Of a stretch of DNA of 64,000 nt, positions 17,585-63,864 are shown piece after piece (positions within the stretch are counted from its first letter, which is position 1; every line of letters starts with the position of its first letter). The notes below the pieces were generated by a model that worked only from the letters and a program-made list of their open reading frames with translations, was not told the origin of the DNA and did no database searches. Origin of the DNA: Clostridiales bacterium (GTDB taxonomy: Bacteria; Bacillota; Clostridia; Christensenellales; Aristaeellaceae); the NCBI GenBank assembly GCA_017569285.1, contig CP069419.1, positions 992,001 to 1,056,000 on the forward strand, read 5' to 3'. Made by a program: the position numbers and the translations under genes.

Positions 17585-17806
17585 GAGCGGGATTCGAAAC
17601 GCAGCCTCAATCGTCGCGACTCCCCACCGGGGAGATCGCTTGTTTCGGCTGAGAAAGACACTGACGAAATTTCCGCCACTGGCGGTCGTCAGCGCCTTTC
17701 CCCACTCCCTTTTTCAAAGGTCGTTTGGTTTCAAATCCCTCTGTACATAAAACAAATCAGCCCCCCAGTGAATGGGGGGCTGATTTGTTTGGTGAGCCCG
17801 GCGGGG
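17585..17806 (-). repeat. Partial copies of the tRNA-Arg 3' end with hairpin
   Basis: Positions 17784-17805 repeat 22 bases identically with 17996-18017, the 3' end of tRNA-Arg(ACG) plus the adjacent terminator arm. Next to it lies a 17-bp perfect stem (17750-17766/17774-17790, loop AGTGAAT) that parallels the tRNA terminator hairpin. A weaker third copy, GAGCGGGATTCGAAAC, is at 17585-17600. No protein in 17340-18000 is believable; the stretch appears to be repeated tRNA-end/terminator modules with diverged spacers. Confidence 0.6.
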
Positions 17807-17962
17807 AACGAAAGAAGCGGTGATCCTGTGGATCATTCTGCGAAGCAGAAAGCGACTTGAGTGAGTCAATCGAAACGAGCAATGCGAGCGCTCCAAGCGA
17901 GCAGTGCGACGATTGAGATTGCGGATATTCGACCCACAGTGGGTTCAGAATCCTGGCGGGCA

Positions 17963-18002
17963 AAACAAAATCACCACCAGCAAAAAGGTGGTGATTTTGT
18001 TT
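17963..18002 (-). terminator. Terminator of tRNA-Arg(ACG)
   Basis: A perfect 16-bp stem (17963-17978 with 17987-18002) just past the tRNA CCA end, with the T-rich strand TTTTGTTTTG downstream on the minus strand. Confidence 0.75.
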
Positions 18003-18078
18003 GGTGAGCCCGGCGGGATTCGAACCCACGACCTTTTGATTCGTAGTCAAACACTCTATCCAGCTGAGCTACGAGCCC
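18002..18078 (-). tRNA. tRNA-Arg(ACG)
   Basis: A 77-base cloverleaf on the minus strand: acceptor GGGCTCG/CGGGCTC with two G-U pairs, D-arm GCTCAGCTGGATAGAGT, anticodon stem TTTGA/TCAAA with loop CTACGAA (anticodon ACG), T-arm GTGGG-TTCGAAT-CCCGC, and encoded ACCA. Confidence 0.93.
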
Positions 18079-23073: not shown

Positions 23074-23778
23074 ATGGGCATTTTGAACAATCCGGAACTA
23101 TTGCGTACTTATGCAACAATTGCCGCCAAGTTTGGATCCGGAAACGTCTACGTGGATGATGCGATAGCCGAAAAGTTTGAGTCTAAGCCAGCAGATTGTT
23201 TCCTTTGCCTGGTGCTCAATCTCCGGTATACTGTTGCTGATGAGCTGCTCAAGAAGTTCCCGGATTTTGCAGAAACCAGAAAACTGATGGATCAGAATCG
23301 GGGAGAGAATTTGACCCGGGCAGGTCTTGAATCCGAATTCGGTGCCTTGTGCAATCATAACCGGGATCCTAAATACACAGATGACTACATTTATGTCTCC
23401 TTGTTGGCTTCTCTGGCCTACGCCCTGTATTATACCAGTGATGACCCGGGAACGCTGGACACCCTTCAGGTCATTCTTGGCAAACTCGATAAACAGGAAA
23501 ATATCATGGGTTATTCCAATGTTCTTGCTGCCGCTGCTTTATGGTTTGCTGACAGAAACGGATTCCGTGACTTGGTCAATGATGCCTACTCCAAAGTGCT
23601 CATTGAGCGGGAAGAGGAACGCCGGTATGCTGAACAGGCAGCCAGAGAGGAGCAGGAAAGAGAAGCCTCTCAGCGGGCCTACTGGCGGACGCATAATCTT
23701 TGTCAAAACTGCGGTGGCTCATTCTCCGGCCTGTTTACTAAAAAGTGCAGCAAATGCGGCAAACTGAAGGATTACTGA
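23074..23778 (+). CDS. Zinc-ribbon protein of unknown function
   Basis: A 234-residue, mostly helical soluble protein. A charged coiled-coil stretch (IEREEERRYAEQAAREEQER, about residues 173-195) leads to a C-terminal zinc ribbon, CQNCGG then CSKCGK, 15 residues apart. I recognise no N-terminal domain; the pattern KFGSGNVYVDDAIAEKF is not from a family I know. GAGAGGGGA precedes ATG 23074. It lies upstream of the FtsK/Hsp70 block on the same strand with similarly lower GC, but has its own promoter, so membership is uncertain. Confidence 0.7.
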   Translation: MGILNNPELLRTYATIAAKFGSGNVYVDDAIAEKFESKPADCFLCLVLNLRYTVADELLKKFPDFAETRKLMDQNRGENLTRAGLESEFGALCNHNRDPKYTDDYIYVSLLASLAYALYYTSDDPGTLDTLQVILGKLDKQENIMGYSNVLAAAALWFADRNGFRDLVNDAYSKVLIEREEERRYAEQAAREEQEREASQRAYWRTHNLCQNCGGSFSGLFTKKCSKCGKLKDY

Positions 23779-24109: not shown

Positions 24110-24135
24110 AACGGCGTAGCTCTTGTTACGCCGTT
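24110..24135 (+). terminator. Hairpin after the 54-residue protein gene
   Basis: A 9-bp stem AACGGCGTA with its complement, followed only by an AT-rich stretch and no T-run; a weak terminator at best. Confidence 0.4.
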
Positions 24136-24390: not shown

Positions 24391-26802
24391 ATGATGGATA
24401 ATATATTAGATGTATGCAGTGAGCTAAACATCGGGCATATTAGAGCTGATTTTCTTGGAAAAGGAAATATTTGGATCAATAACACATATTCTTCACTTGT
24501 CGTCAAATTAGCCCAGCATATTATCTGTGAAGCGATTTTCAAAACTGCTCCCGGTCAGCTTACAGTTTATGGGTTTGACAGAGAACTATCTGGATTGTTC
24601 GCTCCATTTGCCTCCCTTTCTGCCGGAGAATCCCGGATTCTTCACTTTATAACGGATGAGAAGAATCTTTTGGATCAATTGAAAACACTGCAGCAGCAGA
24701 TACAGGAAGTACAGAATGTCGTACAAGGTCGTGAAGAATCACTGATTGAATTTAGAAGCAAGATGCAGCGCGCTATTGAGGGTTACCAATTGGTTGTGCT
24801 GTTTATGGATTTAGGACTTGCGAGTCAGGAAATCCTTTCACAGCTTTCGCTTCTTATGAGAAGTGGACCATCTGCCGGTATCTCTTTCTTGATTATTTCA
24901 ACAACATATCTGTCTTTTCATACTTCCAGTGGAAAAGAGATTGAACGATCCATCGCCTCAATTGCGCCAAACATAACGGTTCTGGAAGTTGGGAAAGGCG
25001 GGGTGTCAGATGAAAGCGGCCAAACTTCCCCATTTGTTCCAGACAATGCAGAAACGATCATTCGAGACTGTGATGCATTCGTAGGTCGGATTCGCAATAC
25101 AAAACTGTCCACTGTATTGTTTTCAGAGCTTCATGATACAACGGATTTCTGGAAGCAAAACAGTATTGATGGACTTACCTTTTGTGTGGGTAAATATGGC
25201 GTCAATAATATGGAAATTACCATTGGCGATGAGATAAATCAACGTCATAATGCAGTTATTACGGGCGCTGTTGGACAAGGCAAATCGAATCTGATCTCTG
25301 TAATTATCCATAGTCTTTGTATGCGGTATTCCCCTAAGGAACTGCAATTACATTTGCTTGATTTCAAAGAAGGCGTATCTTTAAAATCTTATTCCAACAT
25401 TGGTCAGGAAGAATACCTGCCACACGCAAGGACTTTAGGGCTGGAGAGCGATGTGGCTTTTGGCCTTGCAGTTTTGAATTCACTTTTTACTGAGTATATT
25501 AATCGGATGAAGCTTCTGAAAGAGAAAAACGCCAAAAGTATCCGTGAATTACGAATGAACAATCCCGATATCCAGATGCCCCGAATTGTGGTTGTAATTG
25601 ATGAATTCCAGATGATGTTTGGTGAGGATAGTTATACCAGCCAGAAAATCGCAGATATGTTGGAGAAATCCGTACGTCTGTTCCGCGCAGCTGGAATTCA
25701 TTTTATCTTAGCCTCGCAGACTCTTACAGGAAACAGAGCATTAAATCAGAACAGAGATAGCATTTTTAGCCAGATCCCCATCCGCATTGCCCTGAAGAAT
25801 TCCGTTACAGAAGCGCAAGCAATCCTTTCCATGAATAATGCCGCTGCTGCCTATTTAAGGCCCCGTGAGGCTGTAGTAAACCTGGACTATGGCGAGGTTT
25901 CTCAGAACCGTAAAACAGTCATTGCATTTGCTGATGAGAAGTTACTGCGTCCCATACGCAGAAAGATGTGGGAAATGGCTCGTTCCTATACAGTCCCACC
26001 GTTTACCTTCGAGAGCGAGCGGCGGATTTCGTTAGTCAGCGCAATGGGTATCATCAAAAAGGTAAACGAGGCTGCAAAAGCACCGGTGGCATTTATTGGA
26101 GATCAGATTTCAATCGATGGAGAGCGCGTTACCATTCCGATGCGGAATGAGCCTGGCAGAAATATCGCTATTCTGGGCACACCGGATGGTGATTGCAATA
26201 ATGCTATCGGTATTATTCAGAGCGTTGCCCTGTCTCTGGCATATCAGCATCCAACTGGGGATGCAAGATTCCTTTTCTGTGATTTTAACAGTGATTCTCA
26301 ATCTTTTGAGAATAAGTATCCACAGTTTGTCACGCTGATGGAAAAGCTGGGATACTTTATTGAGACGGTTTCAACAGAGCATTTTTCTGATCTGCTTCAG
26401 GAATTGACTGAAAAACCCGTCGGAAGCGATTCAATCTATTTGTTCGGAGTGATGCTTGACCGTTGGATGATTGCTAATGACCCATTTGGAAATGGCAGTC
26501 CACTGAAAGCTCTTGTAGAAAGTGGTCCTGCAAAGAAGATTCATTTTATCGGTTGGTGGGTAAAAGCCTCCAAGTTTACAGCTCAGGTTGCTGGCTTTGG
26601 CAATTCTGATGCATTCAACACAAAAATATTCCTTAGAACAGATGAACGTACCGTCCAATCGTTGACCAACCCATTTGTTCGATGGACTCCGCAAGCAAAC
26701 CGTGGGATGATTGTTGATGATGTTGAATATCAGGAGGAGATGACATTTATCCCCTATGCTCCCATATCCGCAGGAGATTTGCCTGCTTTCCATATATCTT
26801 AG
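24391..26802 (+). CDS. EccC/FtsK-like multi-domain ATPase
   Basis: An 803-residue soluble ATPase of the FtsK/HerA superfamily. The middle domain is intact: Walker A TGAVGQGKSN (about 291-300), Walker B RIVVVIDEF (398-406) and LASQ (440-443). Before it lies a domain without Walker motifs holding a coiled coil (about 92-130). After it lies a third domain whose P-loop is degenerate (LGTPDGDCNN, about 595-604). One active plus degenerate ATPase domains in one chain is the layout of EccC/EssC motors of type VII secretion, but the membrane anchor and FHA domains are missing. GGAGG is 4 bases before ATG 24391 and 7 before the next ATG. It heads an eight-gene block. Confidence 0.85.
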   Translation: MMDNILDVCSELNIGHIRADFLGKGNIWINNTYSSLVVKLAQHIICEAIFKTAPGQLTVYGFDRELSGLFAPFASLSAGESRILHFITDEKNLLDQLKTLQQQIQEVQNVVQGREESLIEFRSKMQRAIEGYQLVVLFMDLGLASQEILSQLSLLMRSGPSAGISFLIISTTYLSFHTSSGKEIERSIASIAPNITVLEVGKGGVSDESGQTSPFVPDNAETIIRDCDAFVGRIRNTKLSTVLFSELHDTTDFWKQNSIDGLTFCVGKYGVNNMEITIGDEINQRHNAVITGAVGQGKSNLISVIIHSLCMRYSPKELQLHLLDFKEGVSLKSYSNIGQEEYLPHARTLGLESDVAFGLAVLNSLFTEYINRMKLLKEKNAKSIRELRMNNPDIQMPRIVVVIDEFQMMFGEDSYTSQKIADMLEKSVRLFRAAGIHFILASQTLTGNRALNQNRDSIFSQIPIRIALKNSVTEAQAILSMNNAAAAYLRPREAVVNLDYGEVSQNRKTVIAFADEKLLRPIRRKMWEMARSYTVPPFTFESERRISLVSAMGIIKKVNEAAKAPVAFIGDQISIDGERVTIPMRNEPGRNIAILGTPDGDCNNAIGIIQSVALSLAYQHPTGDARFLFCDFNSDSQSFENKYPQFVTLMEKLGYFIETVSTEHFSDLLQELTEKPVGSDSIYLFGVMLDRWMIANDPFGNGSPLKALVESGPAKKIHFIGWWVKASKFTAQVAGFGNSDAFNTKIFLRTDERTVQSLTNPFVRWTPQANRGMIVDDVEYQEEMTFIPYAPISAGDLPAFHIS

Positions 26803-26887
26803 TGAGCATCTATAGCTTCTGAGATGTTCTTGCTAAATGTCACAGTCACAGAAAGACCCAATAGAAAGCTGAGAGGAGAAAAGTAAA

Positions 26888-27145
26888 ATGTCCTTGGTTA
26901 TGCAGATTATTCAGGCTGTCACCGCAACAGAACGAGAAATTGATGATCAGATGGCCAAACTGACCTCCTATAACACTAAAGTTGATGAGGTAATGCGACG
27001 TGTTCAGGCAGAACTTGGAGACAGTACAACAAATTATGCGCAGGAAATGATCAGTCAGTTGCAGCAAACAAAAGAGCAAGTTGATGATACTCTGCAAAAA
27101 CTTCAAGCTGCAAAAGACAAGCTGATTCAGGTCAGAGCAATCTGA
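26888..27145 (+). CDS. WXG100-sized helical protein 1
   Basis: An 85-residue, all-helical protein with two long amphipathic helices (MQIIQAVTATEREIDDQMAK onward, and NYAQEMISQLQQTKEQVDDT onward) joined by a short turn at GDST, the size and hairpin plan of ESX/WXG100 proteins. There is no W-x-G in the turn and no clear C-terminal YxxxD/E signal. AGGAG precedes the ATG. Directly follows the EccC-like ATPase. A secreted substrate, adaptor or coiled-coil subunit are all possible. Confidence 0.72.
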   Translation: MSLVMQIIQAVTATEREIDDQMAKLTSYNTKVDEVMRRVQAELGDSTTNYAQEMISQLQQTKEQVDDTLQKLQAAKDKLIQVRAI

Positions 27146-27165
27146 CAAAAAAGGAGGGTATGAAT

Positions 27166-27426
27166 ATGGCAACTATTCAGGAATTAATTGCATCTGTTCA
27201 GGAAATTAAAGGCAGTTCTGAAAACCTGTCTGTTATGGTTAGTGCCGCAGGTAACACACTGGGTGTACAAGCGAATCAGATTGCTTCATTGACCCGTCCA
27301 AGCCAATCAGGGCAGCAAGCGTCCATTGCTGTCAGCGCAGCAGCTCAGTCTGTTTTAAAGGCAGCGGCAATCATGAAGACACTCTGTCGCACATGTGATA
27401 ACTATTTAAATAATGCTGTGAAGTGA
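27166..27426 (+). CDS. WXG100-sized helical protein 2
   Basis: An 86-residue helical protein rich in Ala, Ser and Gln (MATIQELIASVQEIK, QQASIAVSAAAQSVLKAAAI) with a turn at TRPSQSG and a C-terminal CRTCDNYLNNAVK. GGAGGG is 8 bases before ATG 27166 and only 2 before an in-frame ATG at 27160, so the later start is used. The Ala/Ser pattern is that of a membrane- or partner-packing helix pair. Family not recognised. Confidence 0.7.
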   Translation: MATIQELIASVQEIKGSSENLSVMVSAAGNTLGVQANQIASLTRPSQSGQQASIAVSAAAQSVLKAAAIMKTLCRTCDNYLNNAVK

Positions 27427-27432
27427 TAAATA

Positions 27433-27708
27433 ATGAGAGTAGTTAATCCTGAAAAAGCACGGATGAGAACTATCATAATCAATGACATAAAAAGCAATAT
27501 TACGAATCTAAATGCTGTCAAAAATGACGCAATCGATACGAGCGCAATTATTGCTAACATCCTGAGTGGATCGGTCGTTGGTGTTGATCAGGAACTGACC
27601 AATCATTGTCAAAGGATCAGAGAATTGCTTGACCAGGTGATTCAAGGCCTGAATTATTCCAGAGACCTTGCAGAGCAGCTTGATATTACGGAGGAAGTTG
27701 CAGAATGA
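27433..27708 (+). CDS. WXG100-sized helical protein 3
   Basis: A 91-residue helical protein: a first helix over IIINDIKSNITNLNAVKNDA, a SGSVVGVD turn, and a second helix NHCQRIRELLDQVIQGLNYS, ending in an acidic tail. It begins 6 bases after the stop of protein 2 with only a weak ribosome binding site, so translation is probably coupled. Its end overlaps protein 4 by 4 bases (ATGA). Confidence 0.7.
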   Translation: MRVVNPEKARMRTIIINDIKSNITNLNAVKNDAIDTSAIIANILSGSVVGVDQELTNHCQRIRELLDQVIQGLNYSRDLAEQLDITEEVAE

Positions 27709-27965
27709 CAAATATCGTTCAGCTTTGCGAGCATCTGGTAGTGATCGCCGACAGAGGCCATAAAAGCGGTGAACAGTTAAAACGTGAACAAGGGTATATA
27801 TCCGAAACAATTCAAAAAACACAAAGCCTCTTCGCAGATCAAAAGCCAGGCCAAACTCTGATAAATGAATTGTATCGTCTGATCAATACCCTGAGTTCTG
27901 CTGAAAGCGCTGCTAATGCTTTACATGATAGGATTGCACCATATATGTCGCAAATTAATAAATAA
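27705..27965 (+). CDS. WXG100-sized helical protein 4
   Basis: An 86-residue helical protein: first helix over VQLCEHLVVIADRGHKSGEQ, a KPGQT turn, then a second helix over LINELYRLINTLSSAESAAN. It starts inside the last codons of protein 3 (ATGA overlap), strong evidence of translational coupling and a fixed ratio of the two. No known motif. Confidence 0.7.
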   Translation: MTNIVQLCEHLVVIADRGHKSGEQLKREQGYISETIQKTQSLFADQKPGQTLINELYRLINTLSSAESAANALHDRIAPYMSQINK

Positions 27966-27985
27966 CAGCAGGAGGTTCATTGTTT

Positions 27986-29566
27986 ATGGACAAAAAAATC
28001 TATGGTATCGATCTTGGCACGACATATTCTGCTATTGCAGTCTATGAAGATGAGGAAGCTAAAATCATCCCCAACATTGATGGGATGAACACAACTCCTT
28101 CTGTTATTTATTTCAATGGTACAACCTCCGATGGCGATGATGAAATGATCGTCGGTCAGGAGGCGAAGAACGCAGCTGGCCAGCATCCAAACAATGTTGT
28201 TCAGTTCGTGAAGCGTGATATGGGCGTTAAGGACGAAAAGGTCAATCGTAAAGGTCCCAGTGGAAAAACATATACGCCTGAAATGCTTTCTTCGTTTATT
28301 CTGAGAAAGCTCTGTCAGGATGCTTCACAGCGCGTTGATGGAGAGGTAAAAGATGTTGTCATTACAGTTCCGGCGTATTTTGATGATGCACGCCGTACCG
28401 CGACAAAACAGGCCGGTGCCATTGCCGGACTGAATGTTCTTGCTGTGCTTAATGAACCTACCGCTGCTGCTATCGCTTTCGGTCTGGGCAAAGGGAAAGA
28501 CTGCCGTGCATTGGTATATGATCTGGGCGGAGGAACTTTTGATGTTACAATCATGGACATTCACGGCAATTCCTTTGATGTCATTGCTACAGGCGGAGAT
28601 TCAAAGCTGGGCGGCTTCAACTTCGATGCAAAGATGGCAGAAATCATTCGGAACAAACTAACTGACCAGGGGTTTGAACTGGATATCAACGATGATGCGA
28701 TGTTTGCAGATATCCGTGAAAAAGCAGAACGTGCAAAACGGATGCTTTCTGATCGCGAAATGACTCGCCTGCACTTTACACACCCTGATACCAAAAAAGA
28801 CTATTCCATAGAAATTTCCCGTACAGAATTTGAGGCTGCTACAGAGAATCTGATCACAATGACCAGAGTTATTCTTGAAAATACAATGCAAGGAATGCCT
28901 TGGTCAGATATTGATGAGGTTCTGCTTGTCGGCGGATCAACCAAAATGCCCATGGTGAAAAGATTTATTGAAGATATATCCAAACGTCAGGTATCTTATA
29001 AAGTAGATCCAGACACTGCGGTAGCAAAAGGTGCTGCCATCTTTGCAAGCACATTCGATCTGAATGCTGAAAATGGTGTTCCTCAATCGGATGCACGCGT
29101 TGCTGCAGTATCCGAAAATGAGGGTGAAGTATCAAATAGAATCATCATTTCTGATGTTACGAGTCAATCGCTTGGCGTAGTTACCTACGATAAGCAGATG
29201 AAAAAACCTGTTAATACGATCATCATACCGCATAATACAAAAATTCCGACAAAAATGTCTGAGACTGTATATACTATGGATGACAATCAAACAAAAATCA
29301 ATGTAAGAGTAACCGAAGGCGATGACGAAGATATTAACTATGTGAAAATTATTGGTGAAAGCATGCTGTCTATCCCGCCTTATCCAAAGGATTCGCCAGT
29401 TGAAATCATCTATGCTTATGATCCGGATCAGACTGTATCGATTGAGGTTATCGATAAAGTGACAAATCAAAGTCTTGGGACTTTCGAAATTGATCGTTCT
29501 TCCAACATGAGTGCGGAAGAAGTGGTCAAGGCTACGGAAATTTCAAAACGGACATATATTGAATAA
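27986..29566 (+). CDS. Hsp70-family chaperone without the C-terminal lid
   Basis: A 526-residue Hsp70. The nucleotide-binding domain is complete: YGIDLGTTYSAIAVY, VVITVPAYFDDARR, NEPTAAAIAFG, VYDLGGGTFDVTIMD and VLLVGGSTKMPMVK. A substrate-binding beta domain follows (SQSLGVVTYDK, IIPHNTKIPTKMSETVYTM), but the chain stops about 85-110 residues short of DnaK, so the helical lid and disordered tail are absent or vestigial. The interdomain linker is not the usual acidic-leucine form. ATG 27986 is 10 bases after GGAGG; a TTG at 27980 is closer. A dedicated chaperone for this block, not the housekeeping DnaK. Confidence 0.9.
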   Translation: MDKKIYGIDLGTTYSAIAVYEDEEAKIIPNIDGMNTTPSVIYFNGTTSDGDDEMIVGQEAKNAAGQHPNNVVQFVKRDMGVKDEKVNRKGPSGKTYTPEMLSSFILRKLCQDASQRVDGEVKDVVITVPAYFDDARRTATKQAGAIAGLNVLAVLNEPTAAAIAFGLGKGKDCRALVYDLGGGTFDVTIMDIHGNSFDVIATGGDSKLGGFNFDAKMAEIIRNKLTDQGFELDINDDAMFADIREKAERAKRMLSDREMTRLHFTHPDTKKDYSIEISRTEFEAATENLITMTRVILENTMQGMPWSDIDEVLLVGGSTKMPMVKRFIEDISKRQVSYKVDPDTAVAKGAAIFASTFDLNAENGVPQSDARVAAVSENEGEVSNRIIISDVTSQSLGVVTYDKQMKKPVNTIIIPHNTKIPTKMSETVYTMDDNQTKINVRVTEGDDEDINYVKIIGESMLSIPPYPKDSPVEIIYAYDPDQTVSIEVIDKVTNQSLGTFEIDRSSNMSAEEVVKATEISKRTYIE

Positions 29567-29582
29567 CATTATTGGAGGATCT

Positions 29583-30137
29583 ATGTGCGAAGAAAAAAAG
29601 ACAGATACTTTGCCGCCGGAACCACTGAGTGAACAAACGCCCGATGCTGGGACTTCTCCTGAAACTAAGGCTAAAATCTTGTATGTTCATGATGACTTGA
29701 GTCTGAATGAAATCAGGGATGAAATAAATGCCTTGAAGGATTTGTTCACCAGGCGGTTGATGAACGACAAACAAAAGAATGAACTTATTCAAACCCTGAC
29801 AGATGAAGCAAAACATGCTTACATTGAACCTTTCCTTTATGACATTATCCTGCTACTGGACCGCATCGAATATTCCGACAATGAAACTGTGCGCTCAATT
29901 CATGAGGAGTTGACAGAGATATTGGAAAGAAGAGGAGTATCTCTGATTAGTGAATCTTCAGATTTGAACCCAAAGTACTGCAAAGTCATCAGATCCGAAG
30001 AACGTGATGATATTATCGCTCCTCAAATTCTGCGAATTGTCCGGAAAGGATATCTCATACAGGGAAAAGTCGTTCGTCCATTGGAAGTAATCGCAGCCAT
30101 ACCGAAACAGAAGCAAGTTGGTGATATGGCTGAATAA
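29583..30137 (+). CDS. GrpE-like nucleotide exchange factor
   Basis: A 184-residue protein. A disordered, Pro/Glu-rich N-terminus precedes a long helix (LNEIRDEINALKDLFTRRLM) and a GrpE-like tail: YDIILLLDRIE, FN-like NPKYCKVI, IVRKGYLIQGKVVRPLEVIA. The last segment matches the GrpE beta-wing (GYxxxGKVIRPAxV) that pries open Hsp70. GGAGG 5 bases before ATG 29583 selects this start over an upstream one that overlaps the Hsp70 gene. It presumably serves the adjacent lidless Hsp70. Confidence 0.82.
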   Translation: MCEEKKTDTLPPEPLSEQTPDAGTSPETKAKILYVHDDLSLNEIRDEINALKDLFTRRLMNDKQKNELIQTLTDEAKHAYIEPFLYDIILLLDRIEYSDNETVRSIHEELTEILERRGVSLISESSDLNPKYCKVIRSEERDDIIAPQILRIVRKGYLIQGKVVRPLEVIAAIPKQKQVGDMAE

Positions 30138-30187
30138 CATTACAACAAATAAAAAAACTATTAGTCAAAAGAAAGGAAGAATGCACT

Positions 30188-31453
30188 TTGATTAACTACT
30201 ACGAAGAACTAAAACTGGATCCCGCCGCATCGGCAAAAGACCTGATTGAAGAACTGATTCGTCAGGAAGTTGTCTGGCACCAGCGTGAGATAAACGCTCC
30301 GGAAGAAGCTGCTAAAAAGCAGGTCCTGATCAATGAAGCGAAAAAAGTGTTCGCGAGTGAAGCCTCTAAAGCACAATATGACCAGGAACTGAATGCAAAA
30401 CCAATAGAGGAAAAGCAGGCCGATCCGGATGCCGAACGCAGAGCGCAGTATAAATATTGGTATGATCAGGCAAGATCGTACTATCAATCTGGTACCTTTG
30501 ACCTGGCCAAAACAGCTGTGGAGAAAGCCATGAATTATGCTCCCAGCGATCAGGAGGATCCATATTTTTATCAGCTCGCTGCAAACATTTACCGGACGAA
30601 TCAGGATTATTCCACTGCTATGTCCTATATTAATAAGGCCATCGTATTAAAGGGAGACGATGCCACATTCCACCTTGAAAAAGGAATGATCTGCGACAGG
30701 CAGTACAGAACAATAGTTAAAAATGGCTATGGCGAAACTGATCCCATTGTCCGGATGATGCGGGAAGAGTATAAGCAGGCCGATATTATCGCAACAGGTA
30801 AGGATAATTCACTCCGTGGTATAATTCTTGGCGAATTAGCCAGATCACTGTATTTTTATAGTCCAAGAAATGAAGAACTGGCTGAAGAAATAGCCGAGAC
30901 CGCCGTAAGCTTCGGAGATGGTATGGGGCATGGCAAGGAAGTTCTGAATGATCTGGCAGAAAAACGCAGGAAGGCCAAAGAAAACGAAGAGAAAAGGCGT
31001 AAAGACGAGGAGGAAAGGAAGCGGAAAGCAGAACAGGATCGTTTGGCTAGAGAGCAGGCCGAACGTGAAAGAATGGCCAAAGAAGCAACCGAAAAGCATC
31101 GGAACAAACTTAGCATCATCTTGTTTATTCTTTCCATTTTCGGGATGGTAGGAGCAACCGCCTTAGCCTTGTTATCTGGAAACAGGATTGGACCGTTTTC
31201 AGGCATCCCATCATGGCTGCTTATTATTCTGTTTGTAGCATGCGTAGGTGTATACAACTATTGTGCATTTTATCGTTATATCGATGAAGAAAACTGGTGC
31301 CGTTTTATTTGGCTCGTTCTAAGCGCGGTTTTCATCTTCTTCATTGCTGCATTCCGCGGCACCTGGGCAACAGCTGGAATTACAGCAGGTCTTATTGCTC
31401 TTGCTATATTTGTCAGCTGGCTCATCAGCAAAAAAATGAGAGTAGTAAAATAA
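30188..31453 (+). CDS. Membrane protein with degenerate J-domain and TPRs
   Basis: A 421-residue protein. Residues 1-67 resemble a J-domain (NYYEELKLDPAASAKDL at the start, EAKKVFASEASKAQYDQEL at the end), but the HPD tripeptide is replaced by HQR. Residues 80-200 read as TPR-like helix pairs (YYQSGTFDLAKTAVEKAMNY). A charged coiled coil (RRKAKENEEKRRKDEEERKR) leads to four membrane helices at the C-terminus. The start is TTG 30188 after AAGGAAG. It could anchor the Hsp70 machine at the membrane; loss of HPD suggests binding without normal ATPase stimulation. Confidence 0.78.
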   Translation: MINYYEELKLDPAASAKDLIEELIRQEVVWHQREINAPEEAAKKQVLINEAKKVFASEASKAQYDQELNAKPIEEKQADPDAERRAQYKYWYDQARSYYQSGTFDLAKTAVEKAMNYAPSDQEDPYFYQLAANIYRTNQDYSTAMSYINKAIVLKGDDATFHLEKGMICDRQYRTIVKNGYGETDPIVRMMREEYKQADIIATGKDNSLRGIILGELARSLYFYSPRNEELAEEIAETAVSFGDGMGHGKEVLNDLAEKRRKAKENEEKRRKDEEERKRKAEQDRLAREQAERERMAKEATEKHRNKLSIILFILSIFGMVGATALALLSGNRIGPFSGIPSWLLIILFVACVGVYNYCAFYRYIDEENWCRFIWLVLSAVFIFFIAAFRGTWATAGITAGLIALAIFVSWLISKKMRVVK

Positions 31454-31497
31454 GATGTGGAGGGGCGGAAAGCCCTCCATTCCGGCTCTTTCCATCA

Positions 31498-31520
31498 AAG
31501 GCAGCTTCGGCTGCCTTTTT
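31498..31520 (+). terminator. Terminator of the FtsK/Hsp70 block
   Basis: GGCAGC-TTCG-GCTGCC followed by TTTTT. A second hairpin without T-run (GGAGGGG/CCCTCC) lies just before it at about 31459-31479. This closes the block that began at 24391. Confidence 0.9.
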
Positions 31521-58086: not shown

Positions 58087-60396
58087 ATGACATATTCGAT
58101 TATCGGGATACTGGCCCTGATGATCCTGCTCATCATCAACCGGGATATCCTGTGGCACGATCAGGATTCCAGCCGGCATATGCGGAATTACCGGTTTTTC
58201 CTGATCGGTGTATTGGTTTACTACATCACGGATCTGCTGTGGGGCATTCTGGAAGAGCATCGCCTGATGACCGCCCTGTATGCGGATACGGCCGTTCATT
58301 TTGCCGCAATGGCCGCGGCCGTCATGCTGTGGACGCAGTATGTCACTTCCTACCTGGCCGGGGAAAGCCGGTTCGAGAAGTTCCTCCGCTGGGCAGGAAA
58401 AATCTTCCTTTGTTTCCTGCTCGTTGTCATCATCGTCAATTTCTTCACGCCCCTCCTGTTCTGGTTCGATGAAAGCGGTACCTACCAGGCCGGAGTCCTG
58501 CGCTTTGTCACCCTGGGGATTCAGATCCTGCTGTTCCTGCTCACCTCGGTTTACACCCTCCGCGTCACTGCAAGATCAGAAGGCACCGTAAGGCTCCGCC
58601 ATTTTACAATCGGGATGTTCGGCATCGCCATGACGCTGCTCATCGCGATTCAGGTTTTTTATCCCCTGATGCCCTTCTACGCCATGGGATATATGCTGGG
58701 AACCTGCGTGCTGCATTCTTTTGTCGTCGAGGATGAGAAGGAGGAGTACCGCCGGGAGCTTGAAAAGGCGGTGGAGCGGGAGCACCGGCAAGCTGAGGAG
58801 CTGGCCGGAAATCGGGAGGCCCTGCGCACAGCGCTCGCTTCCGCGGAACAGGCGAGCCGTGCGAAAACCGCTTTCCTGTCCAACATGAGCCATGAGATCC
58901 GGACCCCCATGAACGCCATCATTGGCTTGAACAACATCGCCATGAATGATCCGACCGCCAGCGATAAGGTAAAGGAATACCTGGAGCGGATCGGTGATTC
59001 TGCCCAGCACCTGCTGGGAATCATCAATGATATCCTGGATATGAGCCGCATTGAATCCGGGCGGATGATCATCAAGCATGAGGAGTTTTCCTTCGCCCGT
59101 GCCCTGGAACAGGTAAACAGCATCATCAGCACCCAGTGCCGGGATAAGGGGCTTGTATACGACTGCCGGATTGACGGGCACATGGATGACTATTATATCG
59201 GCGACGTCATGAAGCTCCGGCAGGTAATGATCAACATCCTGGGAAACGCCGTTAAATTTACGCCGGAAGGCGGAAAAGTGAGTTTCACCATCGGGGAAGG
59301 CGCGCGGTATGACGGAAAAGTGACTCTCCGGTTCACCGTCAGCGATACCGGTATCGGAATCAGCAGCGAATTCCTGCCGCACATTTTTGACCCGTTCAGC
59401 CAGGAGGATTCCTCTTCCACCAGCCGGTACGGCAGCACCGGACTGGGCCTGCCGATCACGAAGAGCATTGTGGAACTGATGAACGGCCAGATCGACGTAA
59501 AGAGTGAGAAAGGAAAAGGCACCACCTTTACCGTGATGGTCACACTTGGAGAGTCCGGCCGAAAAGCCGGCGAGTCCGGCGGGGACGGCATGGATCCGCA
59601 TCAGATGAGCGTCCTGGTCATTGATGATGACCGGGTTGCCCTGGAGCACGCGGAAATCGTCCTCGGGAAAGTCGGCATCCGCTGCGAAACGGCGGAGTCC
59701 GGCTGGGAGGGACTGGACAAGGTCCGGATCCGGCATGCCCGGGGCGATGACTATGACCTGATCCTGATTGACTGGCGGATGCCGGAAATGGACGGAATTG
59801 AGACCACCCGGCGGATCCGTGCGATTGCCGGAGAGAAAACCCCGATTATCATCCTCACATCCTTCAACTGGGATGAAATCGCGGACGAAGCCAAAGAAGC
59901 GGGTGTCGATACATTCGTCCCGAAGCCCCTGTTTGCCGGGAGCGTCCTGGATGAGTTCCGGGAGGCATACCGGCGCAAGCATGAAGCATTGAAGGAAAAC
60001 ACGGTGAATCTCAGCGGGCGGCGTGTGCTGCTGGCGGAGGATGTGCCGGTCAATGCTGAGATCATGACCATGGTGCTGTCCATGCGGGGCATCGATGCGG
60101 AGCTTGCCGGAAACGGGAAAATCGCGACAGAAATGTTCGCCGGCCATGATCCCGGATACTATGACGCAATCCTCATGGATATGCGGATGCCGGAGATGGA
60201 CGGGCTGGAAGCGACCAGGATCATCCGGGCCATGGACCGGGCGGACGCGAAATCCATTCCCATTATCGCGCTGACGGCCAATGCCTTCGATGAGGATGTG
60301 CAGCGCAGTATGCAGGCAGGACTGAACGCGCACCTGTCCAAGCCGGTGGAACCCGATACCCTGTTCGAAATTCTGGAAAGCCTGATCCGGGACTGA
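58087..60396 (+). CDS. Hybrid sensor histidine kinase with two receiver domains
   Basis: A 769-residue membrane kinase. Six or seven helices fill residues 1-212, a sensor of unrecognised type. A coiled coil (215-258) leads to HisKA with SNMSHEIRTPMNAIIG (His about 269) and HATPase (LRQVMINILGNAVKFTPEGG, SDTGIGISSEFL, GSTGLGLPI). Two receivers follow: MSVLVIDDDRV with LILIDWRMPEMDG and VPKPLF, then RVLLAEDVPVNAEI with AILMDMRMPEMDG and LSKPVE. No Hpt domain is present, so output or phosphotransfer must use another protein. ATG 58087 is 8 bases after GGAGG. Confidence 0.93.
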   Translation: MTYSIIGILALMILLIINRDILWHDQDSSRHMRNYRFFLIGVLVYYITDLLWGILEEHRLMTALYADTAVHFAAMAAAVMLWTQYVTSYLAGESRFEKFLRWAGKIFLCFLLVVIIVNFFTPLLFWFDESGTYQAGVLRFVTLGIQILLFLLTSVYTLRVTARSEGTVRLRHFTIGMFGIAMTLLIAIQVFYPLMPFYAMGYMLGTCVLHSFVVEDEKEEYRRELEKAVEREHRQAEELAGNREALRTALASAEQASRAKTAFLSNMSHEIRTPMNAIIGLNNIAMNDPTASDKVKEYLERIGDSAQHLLGIINDILDMSRIESGRMIIKHEEFSFARALEQVNSIISTQCRDKGLVYDCRIDGHMDDYYIGDVMKLRQVMINILGNAVKFTPEGGKVSFTIGEGARYDGKVTLRFTVSDTGIGISSEFLPHIFDPFSQEDSSSTSRYGSTGLGLPITKSIVELMNGQIDVKSEKGKGTTFTVMVTLGESGRKAGESGGDGMDPHQMSVLVIDDDRVALEHAEIVLGKVGIRCETAESGWEGLDKVRIRHARGDDYDLILIDWRMPEMDGIETTRRIRAIAGEKTPIIILTSFNWDEIADEAKEAGVDTFVPKPLFAGSVLDEFREAYRRKHEALKENTVNLSGRRVLLAEDVPVNAEIMTMVLSMRGIDAELAGNGKIATEMFAGHDPGYYDAILMDMRMPEMDGLEATRIIRAMDRADAKSIPIIALTANAFDEDVQRSMQAGLNAHLSKPVEPDTLFEILESLIRD

Positions 60397-60470
60397 AATT
60401 CATTCCTTAAGCATCTCTTTCATTTGACAAATAGAGCTCAGAAGCTTATACTTTTCAAGCGTCTTGCCCA

Positions 60471-60537
60471 CGTAGCTCAGCCTACAAATGTTATTTTGGT
60501 CCCGTAGCTCAGCCGGATAGAGCGGTCGCCTCCTAAG
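60471..60537 (+). pseudogene. Truncated tRNA-Arg 5' fragments
   Basis: Positions 60498-60537 carry the 5' half of a tRNA-Arg(CCT): acceptor GGTCCCG, D-arm GCTCAGCCGGATAGAGC, and the anticodon arm up to CTCCTAAG, where similarity to the intact copy at 60790 ends abruptly. A shorter fragment, CACGTAGCTCAGCC, is at 60471-60484. The following 250 bases hold no tRNA 3' half and no ORF, only the TTAGAAA motifs described separately. Confidence 0.65.
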
Positions 60538-60673
60538 AAGTAGGCCGACTACCGCTTATCCGGAAACTGAAAACGGGAACAGCGTTCGGAAATGACCCGG
60601 TTTCCTGGTTGCTCCGACACCCTTACGCAGCAAGGTCGAAATCAGCATGTGGGAAAATGTCCTACCGCCAAAT

Positions 60674-60714
60674 TTAGAAAAGCTGATTAGAAATCGACCT
60701 TTCCTGATTAGAAA
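60674..60714. repeat. TTAGAAA direct repeats between tRNA copies
   Basis: TTAGAAA at 60674-60680, 60687-60693 and 60708-60714, with two inverted copies (TTTCTAA) beyond the tRNA at 60993-60999 and 61013-61019. The flanks GAT/ATC are shared by several. Possible recombinase arm sites around tRNA-Arg(CCT). Confidence 0.5.
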
Positions 60715-60789
60715 AAGGCACCCCAACCTTCACGGTGAACAGTCACTGAATCCTCGGAAGCCTTGAAAAATAAGGACTTTCGAGAGCAT

Positions 60790-60866
60790 GGTCCCGTACC
60801 TCAGCAGGATAGAGGGTCCGCCTCCTAAGCGGAACGTCGCGCGTTCGAATCGCGCCGGGATCGCCA
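60790..60866 (+). tRNA. tRNA-Arg(CCT)
   Basis: A 77-base cloverleaf: acceptor GGTCCCG/CGGGATC, D-arm CCTCAGCAGGATAGAGG, anticodon stem TCCGC/GCGGA with loop CTCCTAA (anticodon CCT), T-arm GCGCG-TTCGAAT-CGCGC, discriminator G and encoded CCA. Confidence 0.92.
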
Positions 60867-60871
60867 TTTTA

Positions 60872-60935
60872 CCTACCAGATTCGACAGATTAGCCCTTAA
60901 AAAGGCAACTGTGAAGCTGGTAGGATTTTTCTTTT
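60872..60935 (+). terminator. Candidate terminator of tRNA-Arg(CCT)
   Basis: CCTACCAG pairs with CTGGTAGG across a long loop, then ATTTTTCTTTTT. The T-tract is strong, the loop unusually long. Confidence 0.6.
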
Positions 60936-60958
60936 TCGTGACACTACGGAACGCAAAA

Positions 60959-61290
60959 AATCTGCTAACAGAAGATGACCCCTGTTAGCAGATTTCTAAT
61001 TTTAGAGCCCGATTTCTAATCAACCCTCATTGAAGCCCATGCTTCAGCGTCTAATTTTTTCGGACGATCGTGCTAATTTTGGCGGACGACACGATATACG
61101 TTTTCCTCAAGATTGATAATGCCATTGTAATTTCTTACGCTCGGATCATTTTTTGAATGAGGACCAGAGGTGCTGCCAAAGGGATTTGATCGCCATAAAG
61201 ACATTCATCTGCTAAGCGCGGGTGCAGGTTGGTTAGCAAAAGCGAGGCGTTTTTTTGCTTTGCTAATATCTACCGAAAAACTTAGCAAAG
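60959..61290. repeat. Non-coding stretch with hairpin and TTAGCAAA motifs
   Basis: The 540 bases between tRNA-Arg(CCT) and the integrase remnant hold no believable gene. They contain a CTGCTAACA/TGTTAGCAG hairpin (about 60962-60991) and the octamer TTAGCAAA at 61233-61240 and 61282-61289 plus an inverted copy at 61259-61266. The density of related GCTAA/TTAGC words suggests recombinase or repressor sites. Confidence 0.45.
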
Positions 61291-61404
61291 AATCATACTG
61301 TTGACTCAAGTAGACTTTTTTGTTTTAATCCGATTCATCTTTTGCGATTACAAGGGGTGCCCCATTACAAAGCTCGATATATCTCTCTTTTAATGATTTA
61401 TGGC

Positions 61405-61710
61405 TTAGTGCATTCGCTTCGCTGGAGATACCTTAATGTACCCTTCAGTCTCCAGATAGGTGAAAAAGGTTTTGAAAACCTTGAGTAGATCATTAATGTA
61501 TTGTGGCTTTCTGCCAGCATCATCCATCTTTGCCATAAAGCTCTTAATATGTGCCGGTTTCACATCTTCGATGTTCAGGACTGAAAACTCACTGGAGAGG
61601 TAGTTTTCAAGATACCGCAGTTGTTTGGTATAGTTGCCAATTGTTTTGGGTGACAAGTGCCGTACCTTACAGTCAAGTTCAAATTCTTTGGAAGCATCGC
61701 GAAATGTCAT
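61405..61710 (-). pseudogene. Tyrosine recombinase remnant (core-binding domain only)
   Basis: A 101-residue ORF equal to the N-terminal SAM-like core-binding domain of XerC/D-type integrases: KEFELDCKVRHLSPKTIGNY, RYLENYLSSEF, IKSFMAKMDDAGRKPQYIND, LLKVFKTFFTYLETEGYIKV, SPAKRMH. It stops where the linker to the catalytic domain should begin; no catalytic Arg/His/Tyr block follows in any frame nearby. GGAGGC lies before ATG 61710. Near tRNA-Arg(CCT) and truncated tRNA copies it looks like the remains of an integrated element. Confidence 0.75.
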
Positions 61711-61879
61711 GAATGTCGCCTCCGGATCTGGTAGTGAGATAAGCATTTTTCTATTCTACCAGCGGGAATAGAAGCCGCAACTCTGTCGTTTGGCGAAATG
61801 GTATTGTAAACAGTCGAGTTATTCTACCGTGCATACTCTCATGATGACTCTGGCGGTGTATGCTGATTGGCCCATAAAA

Positions 61880-61907
61880 TTGAGAACAGAATACTGTGTG
61901 ATAAAAT
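61880..61907 (+). promoter_or_regulatory. Candidate promoter of a short transcript
   Basis: TTGAGA at 61880-61885 and TAAAAT at 61902-61907 with 16 bases between; start expected near 61914. Confidence 0.55.
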
Positions 61908-61913
61908 ATAAAT

Positions 61914-61980
61914 ATCATAGGCATGCACTGATGAACCTGCTATCAGGTATCACAGGCAAGTCTGTGATATTTGTTTTTTG
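61914..61980 (+). ncRNA. Predicted short terminated transcript
   Basis: Between the promoter at 61880 and a terminator (ATCACAG 61949-61955, complement 61962-61968, then TTTGTTTTTTG) lies room for an RNA of only about 65 bases. It could be a small RNA or an attenuator for the secreted-protein gene at 62191, 210 bases further on. No long ORF fits. Confidence 0.4.
61949..61979 (+). terminator. Intrinsic terminator upstream of the secreted-protein gene
   Basis: A 7-bp perfect stem with a 6-base loop followed by a T-rich run ending in TTTTTT. Confidence 0.7.
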
Positions 61981-62190
61981 GGGGTGTATCCGATCGTAGA
62001 CAGCTTTGCAAGGACTTCAACGTTAAGAAGGAAAGAAAGTACACCGAAGCGTCAATATACCTATTATTGGATCGCAGAAGGAAATAGTGCTACTCGAAGC
62101 GAATAACAGCGGTATAAAAAATGAGCTTCGAATGCAAGAATTTGCATAGTAGAATCGTCATTTTATAGGAACAAAAAGGAGGTGCTGCCG

Positions 62191-63627
62191 ATGAAACGAC
62201 TTGTCAGTATTATTACCGCACTTTGTCTATTGATTCTTGCCTCGTCTTCTACTGTAGTTGCAGAATCCACAACTGTATTACCCGCTGAAATCAGGGAGTT
62301 CTTTAACAAATCATCCTTTGATGGGATGACAGTTATGAGCACAGCAAACGGTATTGAAATCGGTGGCAAAGATGCCTGCTATGCAGTGCTTATCCGCAAA
62401 GCGAATAAGGAAAACGTGCTCTACATGTTTAATCGCAGCCAGGATGGGTCTGTATGGGAATATGGCTTTTCCACAAGCTCCGCCGTACCGCAAACCAGCC
62501 ATACGATAGAAATAACCATTGAAATGACAGGAAACGAATGGCCAACAGATGAATACTTTCAAACTCCGCACCTTTCCATTCTGCAACATGATTCTGGGAA
62601 TGAATATCCGGAATTGTGTGTCACTTTTGAGCTGTCCAACGGCAAATGGCTGTTGCACAGGATCTGGAGCTATACGGTCTATCAGAGTATGTTAATACGG
62701 GATGGAAGCATCAGCTATTATCCTGATATTGAGAGCGTCCGAATAGCTGGAACTGCAAAAGGTGATTTTCAACGTGATCTTCGTTATGTCAGCTTATCTG
62801 CCATCCCGAAAACATTAGCAGAGGCGAGAGCGAAATTGACAGTAGCTCCAGATCTTCCAGATTCCACTGAATTACAGGCATATCCCGTAACTTTCTCGGG
62901 CAATAAGAAGTATGACGTATACTCCGCTCCGGATAAGACTTCACTGCGGGGAGCAAACGGAAAAGCCAAGGTCTCAACGAATAGCTGGATTCAGGTTTTT
63001 GGCACTGAAAATGATTGGGCATTGATTCAGTATTCTATCGATGCTTCCCACTACCGTTTCGGTTACATTAGCAGTAAAGCCCTGCCCAAGAAGGCAAATG
63101 TTCCCGCCCTGTCTTTTCATGCTGTTGATGCATGGACAACCACTGCAGTTTCCCTGACAGATGATCCTCTCTACAGCGGGTCAGAATTACTTTTCCTACA
63201 GGAAGGATTACATGTTACGTGGTTAGCAACCCTTGGTGAGTGGGCTTATGTTGAAGTAAGCAGTGGTGATTGGGCTCGTGGCTTTGTTCCGCTCTCATCC
63301 GTCACAACATCACAAGAAATCGATATGGAGAACAACCCTAGTGAAGGCGGAGAAATAGTTTACGATGGGGTTGTAACTGTGTTTCATGATGACCGAATCG
63401 AATTTGAATTACACATTGCGCAGAGTGGCCCGTTAGCCAGCAGCGAAGTAAGTCAGATCCGTGTAACAGACACTTTTGGCGATTCCGTATTGGCGATCCT
63501 TTCGCCTGATTCATACGGAACTTACTATGGTAACTGCAGTCTTGGCGGCGATGTAACATCAATTACGCTTACCGCAGTTGATGACGCAGGTACCGCATAT
63601 TCCCAAATTGTCAGAATAGAATGGTAA
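62191..63627 (+). CDS. Secreted protein with SH3-like repeats
   Basis: A 478-residue exported protein: signal peptide (LVSIITALCLLILASSSTVV to about AES), a domain of about 215 residues shared with the protein at 5673 (LPAEIREFF; VLIRKANKEN; LSAIPKTLAEARAKL), two SH3-like domains (YDVYSAPDKTSLRGANGKAK to FGYISSKALP; VSLTDDPLYSGSEL to WARGFVPLSS), and a C-terminal beta domain (VTVFHDDRIEFELHIAQSG). SH3b-type repeats bind the cell wall. GGAGG is 8 bases before ATG 62191. GC content is lower than in its paralogue. Confidence 0.78.
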   Translation: MKRLVSIITALCLLILASSSTVVAESTTVLPAEIREFFNKSSFDGMTVMSTANGIEIGGKDACYAVLIRKANKENVLYMFNRSQDGSVWEYGFSTSSAVPQTSHTIEITIEMTGNEWPTDEYFQTPHLSILQHDSGNEYPELCVTFELSNGKWLLHRIWSYTVYQSMLIRDGSISYYPDIESVRIAGTAKGDFQRDLRYVSLSAIPKTLAEARAKLTVAPDLPDSTELQAYPVTFSGNKKYDVYSAPDKTSLRGANGKAKVSTNSWIQVFGTENDWALIQYSIDASHYRFGYISSKALPKKANVPALSFHAVDAWTTTAVSLTDDPLYSGSELLFLQEGLHVTWLATLGEWAYVEVSSGDWARGFVPLSSVTTSQEIDMENNPSEGGEIVYDGVVTVFHDDRIEFELHIAQSGPLASSEVSQIRVTDTFGDSVLAILSPDSYGTYYGNCSLGGDVTSITLTAVDDAGTAYSQIVRIEW

Positions 63628-63722
63628 TCATCCTGGCTTCACCCCCGGCCAGACTTTATCAATAAATAGCCAGCGTGTCTGCGGATTCATGCCATTGAGC
63701 AGTCTGTAGTGACCAACTGTAG

Positions 63723-63830: not shown

Positions 63831-63864
63831 GCATAGAAGAAAAAATTAGCCGGAGGTTGTACGC

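What the first reader, a model, noticed from the sequence alone, without database searches (positions are those of the whole stretch)
24391..31453. Candidate new system: EccC-like ATPase, four mini-helical proteins and a private Hsp70/GrpE/J-like chaperone set
Eight consecutive plus-strand genes, short gaps or ATGA overlaps, one terminator at the end and lower GC than the flanks. The first encodes an FtsK/EccC-type ATPase with one intact and two degenerate domains but no membrane anchor. Next come four 85-91 residue helical proteins of ESX size, then a lidless Hsp70, a GrpE-like factor and a membrane TPR/J-like protein. Type VII secretion normally has EccC plus WXG100 substrates but no dedicated Hsp70 trio. 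The set suggests a chaperone-fed export, contact-dependent or defence machine. I know of no described system with this composition.
Basis: partly seen in the sequence, partly recalled or inferred. Interest (0 to 1): 0.92.

Follow-up and report, generated by a model that had tools for sequence, protein, structure and literature searches.

The report
EssC-like ATPase operon with private chaperones
A bacterium carries an eight-gene operon in which a motor protein related to those of type VII secretion sits with four tiny hairpin proteins and its own Hsp70-type chaperone set; much of this gene set recurs in distant bacteria, in some of them beside toxin-like genes, so it is probably a little-known toxin-handling machine.

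Summary
The eight genes are real, and the set is not a chance neighbourhood. Searching by the ATPase alone gave 48 genome loci and one plasmid; with the window, 50 loci from Bacillota, Actinomycetota and Saccharibacteria. Hairpin genes lie by the ATPase in 49 of 50, the J-like/TPR protein in 45, Hsp70 and GrpE in 23 each. The core is thus ATPase + hairpins + J-TPR, with an optional Hsp70/GrpE pair.

The ATPase resembles EccC/EssC, has one intact middle domain and no membrane anchor. The 21 near-full-length system Hsp70s form one clade without the lid. None of 51 J-like segments keeps HPD.

In some Actinobacteria and one Saccharibacterium, downstream proteins, several with hairpin ends, carry toxin domains, often followed by a small immunity-like gene. 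The window has none. Best reading: an effector-export machine without the type VII membrane parts; export is untested. Nearest in print: CoCoNuT EssC/WXG100 cassettes, the Helicobacter 'WXG100 secretion system' (FtsK, WXG100, nuclease, DnaK homolog), and GAP1-N2 systems with HSP70/GrpE/DnaJ.

The parts
24110..24135 (+). terminator-like hairpin upstream of the operon
   Evidence: consensus scan, weak enrichment
24391..26802 (+). EssC/EccC-like ATPase, 803 aa: modelled as three domains, only the middle one (about 233-540) with Walker A GAVGQGKSN and Walker B DEF; no TM segment
   Evidence: (invariant columns in 46 sequences)
26888..27145 (+). hairpin protein S1, 85 aa, predicted helix-turn-helix with a GS-type turn
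27160..27426 (+). hairpin protein S2, 88 aa (hairpin by profile match, not modelled)
27433..27708 (+). hairpin protein S3, 91 aa (hairpin by profile match, not modelled)
27705..27965 (+). hairpin protein S4, 86 aa, ATGA overlap with S3 (hairpin by profile match, not modelled)
27986..29566 (+). lidless Hsp70, 526 aa; nucleotide-binding domain and beta substrate-binding domain, no helical lid
29583..30137 (+). GrpE-like nucleotide exchange factor, 184 aa
30188..31453 (+). J-like (HPD-less) + TPR protein, 421 aa, with four predicted C-terminal TM helices (310-413)
31497..31518 (+). terminator-like hairpin at the end of the operon

Best explanation
The operon encodes a toxin- or effector-handling export machine of the EssC/EccC kind that lacks the type VII membrane parts. 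The TM-less ATPase (by family knowledge, probably hexameric) captures helical-hairpin proteins, which act as adaptor or carrier domains for cargo. The J-like/TPR protein, with predicted TM helices in most loci, docks the ATPase or cargo at the membrane through its TPR and HPD-less J-like domain. Where present, the lidless Hsp70 and GrpE keep cargo loose or recycle the complex. In some Actinobacteria the cargo is polymorphic toxins with small immunity proteins. In the window's lineage the cargo is unknown: the four hairpins themselves, or genes elsewhere. Shown by computation: composition, recurrence across phyla, co-inheritance, loss of the Hsp70 lid and of HPD, toxin domains in relatives. Inferred: export, docking by the J-TPR protein, the role of Hsp70, delivery to rivals.
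For: Loci were gathered by ATPase sequence only, yet hairpins occur in 49 of 50 and J-TPR in 45 of 50; among 34 loci with full flanks, in 34 and 33. System ATPases form one clade (47 rows of 58, 100/100), and so do 21 system Hsp70s against 17 other Hsp70s. Distances track the ATPase: r 0.80 for Hsp70 (n 20), 0.75 for GrpE (n 21), 0.64 for J-TPR (n 44), 0 of 2000 permutations each. The eight best Foldseek hits of the ATPase model are EccC/EssC chains. Five of ten effector candidates scanned score above Pfam cut-offs: ADPrib_exo_Tox in L078 and L086, Gln_amidase in L083, EndoU in L084, Peptidase_C2 in L085. Small co-directional ORFs follow the effector at once in L038, L077, L078, L083, L085, L086, L070, L072 and L066; those of L038 and L077 are alike (36%, 1.2e-18). 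A distant relative on a Helicobacter plasmid sits beside a WXG100-like protein (below cut-off), a WHH nuclease and a SUKH immunity protein.
Against: No channel protein is recognisable. No toxin is near the window operon, and none was evident by eye in eight further, mainly Clostridial, loci (a ninth, L043, showed no extra gene; no family search was run on those genes). The clean hairpin profile does not find the hairpin in the effectors of L038, L085, L072 or L066, is weak in L084, L086 and L088, and for L083 (3.4e-5) is hardly better than the best reversed decoy (4.2e-5). Hsp70/GrpE are missing from about half of the loci. Immunity function is inferred from position and size only; none was recognised in L084, L087 or L088, and L073 ends at its contig edge.
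Confidence: 0.55

Rival explanations
1. Intracellular conflict (defence) system: the ATPase and hairpins hold toxin-like effectors in check or assemble them inside the cell, and release them on infection; no export.
For: TM-less EssC-like ATPases with WXG100 proteins occur inside CoCoNuT antiviral loci (PMC11090510, section 10); a Caballeronia plasmid locus that resembles those by annotation joins near our clade, with weak support (80/64) and long branches. No channel protein is seen. Prevalence is patchy: 7 of 112 Bifidobacterium genomes; in the phylum sample of 398, only the window's own genome has a full-length match.
Against: Immunity-like genes beside the effectors and toxin types usual in secreted polymorphic toxins ('usual' is general knowledge). 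J-TPR proteins carry LRR_5 domains, often extracellular, above cut-off in L044 and L046.
Confidence: 0.25
2. Envelope stress or protein quality-control machine: the J-TPR membrane protein senses stress, Hsp70/GrpE and the ATPase remove hairpin proteins; toxins in relatives are later additions.
For: J-TPR is the most constant partner after the hairpins (45 of 50); no toxin in the window.
Against: An EssC/EccC-type ATPase with dedicated hairpins is a secretion signature; HPD loss in 51 of 51 segments argues against a standard folding cycle.
Confidence: 0.1
3. Accessory or decayed part of a canonical type VII secretion system elsewhere in the genome.
For: The window's genome also has a WXG100 gene and, 8 kb from it, a 1507-aa EssC-like frame, about 770 kb from the operon.
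Against: Of nine other genomes with the system tested, five have no WXG100 match at E 0.001, nor has the one plasmid record. The ATPase clade is separate from the genus's EssC-like proteins.
Confidence: 0.07

Closest known systems
EssC-like ATPase + WXG100 cassette of extended Type III-A CoCoNuT operons (Bell et al. 2024, PMC11090510, section 10 read)
   Same: ATPase related to EssC, no TM helices, three ATPase domains of which only the central one is predicted active; small helical WXG100-fold proteins, one without WxG; nuclease beside it; [quoted passage not shown]
   Different: No VWA, CARF, kinase/phosphatase or McrBC family among the nine window proteins scanned; no N-terminal coiled coil of 200 residues on the window ATPase; here an HPD-less J-TPR protein and a lidless Hsp70/GrpE pair; separate ATPase clade (100/100)
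Helicobacter pylori 'WXG100 secretion system' cluster, with HP0062 and HP0066 as WxG and FtsK paralogs (PMC4978471, table entries and passages seen)
   Same: FtsK-family ATPase, WxG100 protein, HNH/ENDO VII-type nuclease and a DnaK homolog named among the component gene clusters
   Different: No GrpE and no J-TPR protein in the passages seen; relation of that DnaK homolog to the system Hsp70 not tested here. The related Helicobacter sp. plasmid locus L041 shows no HSP70 family match
GAP1-N2 GTPase systems, HSP70/GrpE/DnaJ theme (Kaur et al. 2020, PMC7159879, section 29 read)
   Same: HSP70 + GrpE + a DnaJ- or TPR-bearing protein, mainly in Actinobacteria and Firmicutes
   Different: Those centre on GTPases and GAP1; no EssC-like ATPase or hairpins are mentioned in the passages read, and no GTPase is in the window operon. 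Their Hsp70s were not in my tree
Type VII secretion (EccC/EssC)
   Same: ATPase fold and middle-domain sequence (NCBIfam EccCa 1.2e-19, EssC 4.3e-18, both far below the curated cut-offs); helical hairpin partners
   Different: No TM anchor, no membrane subunits, hairpins without WXG and not significantly like WXG100 in sequence
Polymorphic toxin systems (family knowledge)
   Same: Conserved end domain, variable toxin domain and a small gene after it, in some relatives
   Different: Not present in the window

Membership tests
Type VII secretion system | EccC/EssC ATPase anchored by TM helices | tested here: not met
   EccC/EssC fold found; window ATPase has no segment over threshold (max 1.38), while four EssC-like proteins of the genus have one each (1.73-2.42). 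The test is crude: 13 of 50 family members have a segment just over it, which I take, unchecked, as buried strands
Type VII secretion system | WXG100 partner proteins | tested here: not met
   Pfam WXG100 0.055 for S1, below cut-off; 8 of 32 S members match weakly, best 0.0022; hhalign score 23.25 against 22.28 for the reversed control. Hairpin fold alike, but Foldseek gives no PDB match at E 0.001; EsxGH is rank 37 at E 1.0
Type VII secretion system | other membrane subunits (EccB/D/E or EsaA/EssA/EssB) | tested here: not met
   no such family among nine window proteins in Pfam or NCBIfam; other loci not scanned for them
CoCoNuT-type EssC/WXG100 cassette | TM-less three-domain ATPase with only the central domain active | tested here: met
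CoCoNuT-type EssC/WXG100 cassette | long N-terminal coiled coil on the ATPase | tested here: not met
   the window ATPase has no such extension; that of L038 has about 85 extra residues
CoCoNuT-type EssC/WXG100 cassette | VWA, CARF and CoCoNuT genes alongside | tested here: not met
   none among the nine window proteins; flanks of the other loci were not scanned by family
GAP1-N2 GTPase system | GTPase and GAP1 genes | tested here: inconclusive
   none among nine window proteins; other flanks not scanned; no GAP1 model was sought by name
DnaK-DnaJ-GrpE chaperone system | J domain with HPD | tested here: not met
   0 of 51 segments cut from 60 J-TPR ORFs; 9 ORFs could not be cut and at least one segment (L046 17607) is miscut. 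HPD occurs in the first 110 residues of 1 of 60 ORFs (L073), ahead of the J-like domain. Some actinobacterial members keep HPK, HPN, HPV, HPE or SPD a few columns on
DnaK-DnaJ-GrpE chaperone system | Hsp70 nucleotide-binding motifs | tested here: met
   GGGTFD-type motif in 21 of 21; the two other strict patterns in 14 and 15 of 21
DnaK-DnaJ-GrpE chaperone system | helical lid | tested here: not met
   21 of 21 end 19 residues after the lid start, against 132 and 139 in two DnaKs and 50 in the genome's other short Hsp70
Polymorphic toxin system | variable toxin domain plus immunity gene | tested here: inconclusive
   toxin domains in relatives, immunity-like ORFs by position; none in the window; function not testable here
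Any secretion system | substrate leaves the cell | not testable with these tools
   needs experiment

The most novel reading that the evidence does not exclude
A distinct secretion system: a TM-less EssC-like motor coupled to the membrane by HPD-less J-like/TPR proteins and driven or reset by a dedicated lidless Hsp70/GrpE cycle, exporting hairpin-tagged toxins. It would be a bacterial parallel to the mitochondrial import motor, where an HPD-less J-like protein (Pam16, recalled) also serves an Hsp70.
Probability: 0.33. Interest if true: 0.9.

Novelty: new variant of a known kind. Interest (0 to 1): 0.68.

Why it matters
If it exports toxins, it would show that the type VII motor can work without the known membrane complex and can be coupled to an Hsp70 machine. 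Loci with and without Hsp70/GrpE make the chaperone's role directly testable. It also flags a recurrent J-like family without HPD and a lidless Hsp70 family that standard annotation may name as ordinary DnaK, DnaJ and GrpE.

Tried and rejected
Rejected: chance neighbourhood. Rejected: small ORFs as noise. Rejected: hairpins as plain WXG100 members by sequence; the hhalign score was hardly better than the reversed control, and a weak PDB hit to ESAT-6 (0.0063) sits among unrelated coiled coils. Not supported: phage origin; 43 pattern matches in viral contigs gave no relative, and in the phage collection 0 of 182 records with a match cover 80% of the ATPase. Rejected: Hsp70 as a local duplicate of the genome's own. 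PMC5720513 holds all four terms but describes an ordinary type VII locus and ordinary chaperones (passages seen).

Led nowhere: an empty-site test in congeners. Only 3 of 36 have the downstream gene at E 1e-60 and 1 of 36 the upstream gene at 1e-40; the closest relative's contig breaks inside the downstream gene. The search for more hairpin proteins in the window's genome found the four known ones and one hit at E 0.54. The second structure aligner was not available.

Limits: the genome scan used two peptide patterns, so 48 loci is not a census. Neighbour profiles were iterated on the same ORF set. Several loci are MAGs; L056 (labelled Saccharibacteria) and L054 (labelled actinobacterium) fall among Clostridia in the tree and may be misbinned. 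The 46-row ATPase alignment leaves out L038, L045, L088 and L090. In one search L047 was counted as Hsp70-bearing although only a GrpE piece was found there. One search leaves out L045 as a near-copy. Searches use 21 of 27 matching Hsp70 ORFs (over 450 aa and 400 bits). The tree warns of long branches among the outgroups.
Full report
OBSERVATION. Eight plus-strand genes lie at 24391-31453 as described: ATPase, four proteins of 85-91 aa, Hsp70, GrpE and a J-like/TPR membrane protein. Family scans name FtsK_SpoIIIE, HSP70, GrpE and TPR; the J domain and the small proteins stay below cut-offs. Terminator-like hairpins stand before and after. GC is low, but over a wider stretch, about 17-32 kb. 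Where computed, non-synonymous change is below synonymous change for every gene, the small ones included.

RECURRENCE. In the 60 nearest genomes searched, the ATPase finds only partial matches around the FtsK domain. Of 398 phylum genomes, two pass E 1e-17: the window's own, and one that covers residues 233-480 only. In 72,556 plasmid records one covers 97% of it at 35% identity, in a Rhodococcus, and its neighbours are Hsp70, a TPR protein and GrpE. An alignment of these two ATPases gave 48 loci in a collection of 84,980 species genomes. Neighbours played no part in the choice. Counting the window and the plasmid (50 loci): hairpins within about 3 kb downstream in 49, J-TPR 45, Hsp70 23, GrpE 23, all three chaperone genes 22; in the 34 with full flanks: 34, 33, 17, 16 and 16. 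The one locus without hairpins is L081, whose contig ends 353 bases past the ATPase. Of 24 loci with Hsp70 or GrpE, 22 have both. In one genus, Bifidobacterium, 7 of 112 genomes have the ATPase.

LAYOUTS. In several Clostridia: ATPase - hairpins (four by the direct count) - Hsp70 - GrpE - J-TPR, as in the window. Some Bifidobacterium and Thermophilibacter: Hsp70, J-TPR and GrpE before the ATPase, then 2-3 hairpins. Rhodococcus, Nocardia, Leifsonia, Aeromicrobium, a Saccharibacterium and others: Hsp70, J-TPR, GrpE, a longer ATPase, often a coiled protein of about 200 aa (one C-terminal TM helix in the eight checked), a hairpin, and in many an effector candidate. Actinomyces, Propionibacteriaceae and others: J-TPR and hairpins without Hsp70/GrpE.

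THE PARTS. ATPase: Walker A and B of the middle domain are invariant in 46 sequences; the eight best PDB matches of the model (pLDDT 89.3) are EccC or EssC, the first aligned over 927 columns, though with poor global superposition (TM 0.46, rmsd 12.4). That the outer domains are degenerate RecA-like units is read from this and from the lack of Walker motifs. Hairpins: the four window copies and their relatives cross-match in profiles and most share a GS-type turn; the model of the first is a clean two-helix hairpin, without a significant PDB match. By sequence they are hardly closer to WXG100 than their reversed versions are. Hsp70: 21 system members form one clade at 100/100 against 17 others, and all 21 end 19 residues after the lid start. 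In plasmids, identity to the Nocardia member drops from 66% in the system record to 42-45% in the other 14 of the 15 records listed (285 matched). J-TPR: none of 51 cut segments has HPD; 39 of 45 best J-TPR proteins have a predicted TM segment, four in the window; two of those scanned carry LRR_5 above cut-off (L044, L046).

CO-INHERITANCE. Pairwise distances of Hsp70, GrpE and J-TPR follow those of the ATPase (r 0.80, 0.75, 0.64; 0 of 2000 permutations each). The ATPase tree needs five gains or losses of Hsp70 (22 of 47 rows labelled, L047 among them on a GrpE piece alone), which fits an old Hsp70 with several losses.

EFFECTORS. Ten candidates downstream of the ATPase were scanned. Five pass Pfam cut-offs: ADP-ribosyltransferase in L078 and L086, papain-fold glutamine deamidase in L083, EndoU nuclease in L084, calpain-type protease in L085; the other five have no family above cut-off. 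A profile made only of stand-alone hairpins finds the hairpin at the N-terminal end of L073, L077, L078 and L083 and at the C-terminus of L052 (E 3.4e-5 to 1.2e-9). Among 4767 reversed ORFs the best scores 4.2e-5 and nine pass 0.01, so L083 is marginal. It is weak in L084, L086 and L088 and absent in L038, L085, L072 and L066. So the 'hairpin + toxin' fusion is firm for some and only suggested by position for others. A small co-directional ORF follows at once in L038 and L077 (alike, 36% over 121 columns), L078, L083, L085, L086, L070, L072 and L066; none was recognised for L084, L087 or L088, and L073 ends at the contig edge (ORFs judged by eye after a third-position GC filter; no filter for L066, L070, L072). 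A distant relative on a Helicobacter plasmid stands beside a WXG100-like protein (below cut-off), a WHH nuclease and a SUKH immunity protein.

NOT IN THE WINDOW. No toxin lies in the operon, and no further hairpin protein was found in its genome. The same genome has a separate WXG100 gene and EssC-like gene. Five of nine other genomes with the system, and the plasmid record, have no WXG100 match, so the system does not seem to depend on a type VII system.

WHAT IS KNOWN. Ten searches of the paper library led to three close descriptions. Bell et al. 2024 (section 10 read) describe EssC-like ATPases without TM helices, active only in the central domain, with WXG100 proteins, inside CoCoNuT defence operons, and cite a 2012 paper (not held) for stand-alone copies. 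A Helicobacter pylori pan-genome study (passages seen) tabulates a 'WXG100 secretion system' made of three gene clusters; the entries seen for two of them name a DnaK homolog, WxG100 family, FtsK/SpoIIIE and an HNH/ENDO VII nuclease. Kaur et al. 2020 (section 29 read) describe GTPase systems with HSP70, GrpE and DnaJ/TPR proteins. None of the passages has the full set seen here. In a tree of the middle domain our ATPases are one clade (100/100) inside a wider group (95/89) with four relatives, three of them without a TM segment and the Helicobacter one marginal (1.71), and apart from the EssC-like and SpoIIIE-like outgroups, with long-branch warnings.

VERDICT. A real, recurrent, cross-phylum system: a new variant of the TM-less EssC/WXG100-type cassettes, marked by an HPD-less J-TPR protein and an optional lidless Hsp70/GrpE pair. 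Toxin or effector export is the best reading (0.55); intracellular defence is the main rival (0.25).

Noticed in passing
window 17762-18078: A 51-base direct repeat (75% alike) reaches into the tRNA-Arg gene at the edge of the low-GC stretch; it may be an old integration site.
   Followed up: no
window 23074-23778: A 234-aa protein with a zinc-ribbon-like end and no family above cut-off lies just upstream of the operon.
   Followed up: partly
window 60001-64000: A second low-GC stretch next to a tRNA-Arg gene at 60790.
   Followed up: no
L123 6972-10217: The window's genome has another short Hsp70 (527 aa) beside an HPD-bearing DnaJ protein and a 283-aa protein; the three congeners looked at share it.
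   Followed up: partly
L041 9149-13551: Helicobacter sp. plasmid: WXG100-like protein, WHH/colicin-type nuclease, SUKH immunity protein and EssC-like ATPase in a row.
   Followed up: partly
L042 584-7371: Human gut contig labelled phage: ThiF-like protein (by eye), 1423-aa FtsK-type protein and a helical protein with an HExxH end; looks like a related effector locus.
   Followed up: partly
L040 9739-18854: Rhodococcus plasmid: long FtsK-type ATPase next to TerD-family proteins.
   Followed up: no
L060 19246-21723: Thermophilibacter has a second, divergent ATPase of the family (826-aa frame) 7 kb downstream.
   Followed up: no
L078 14377-14592 and L086 14593-14808: 71-aa proteins 89% identical lie after ADP-ribosyltransferase effectors in an actinobacterial MAG and a Saccharibacterium, suggesting transfer between phyla.
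   Followed up: partly
L085 6490-8086: The Hsp70 gene matches on both strands in pieces, as if part were inverted or misassembled.
   Followed up: no
L038, L073, L077, L078, L081, L086: A recurrent protein of the tyrosine-recombinase N-terminal type fused to a receiver-like part lies near the operon in these six loci; type named by eye only.
   Followed up: no
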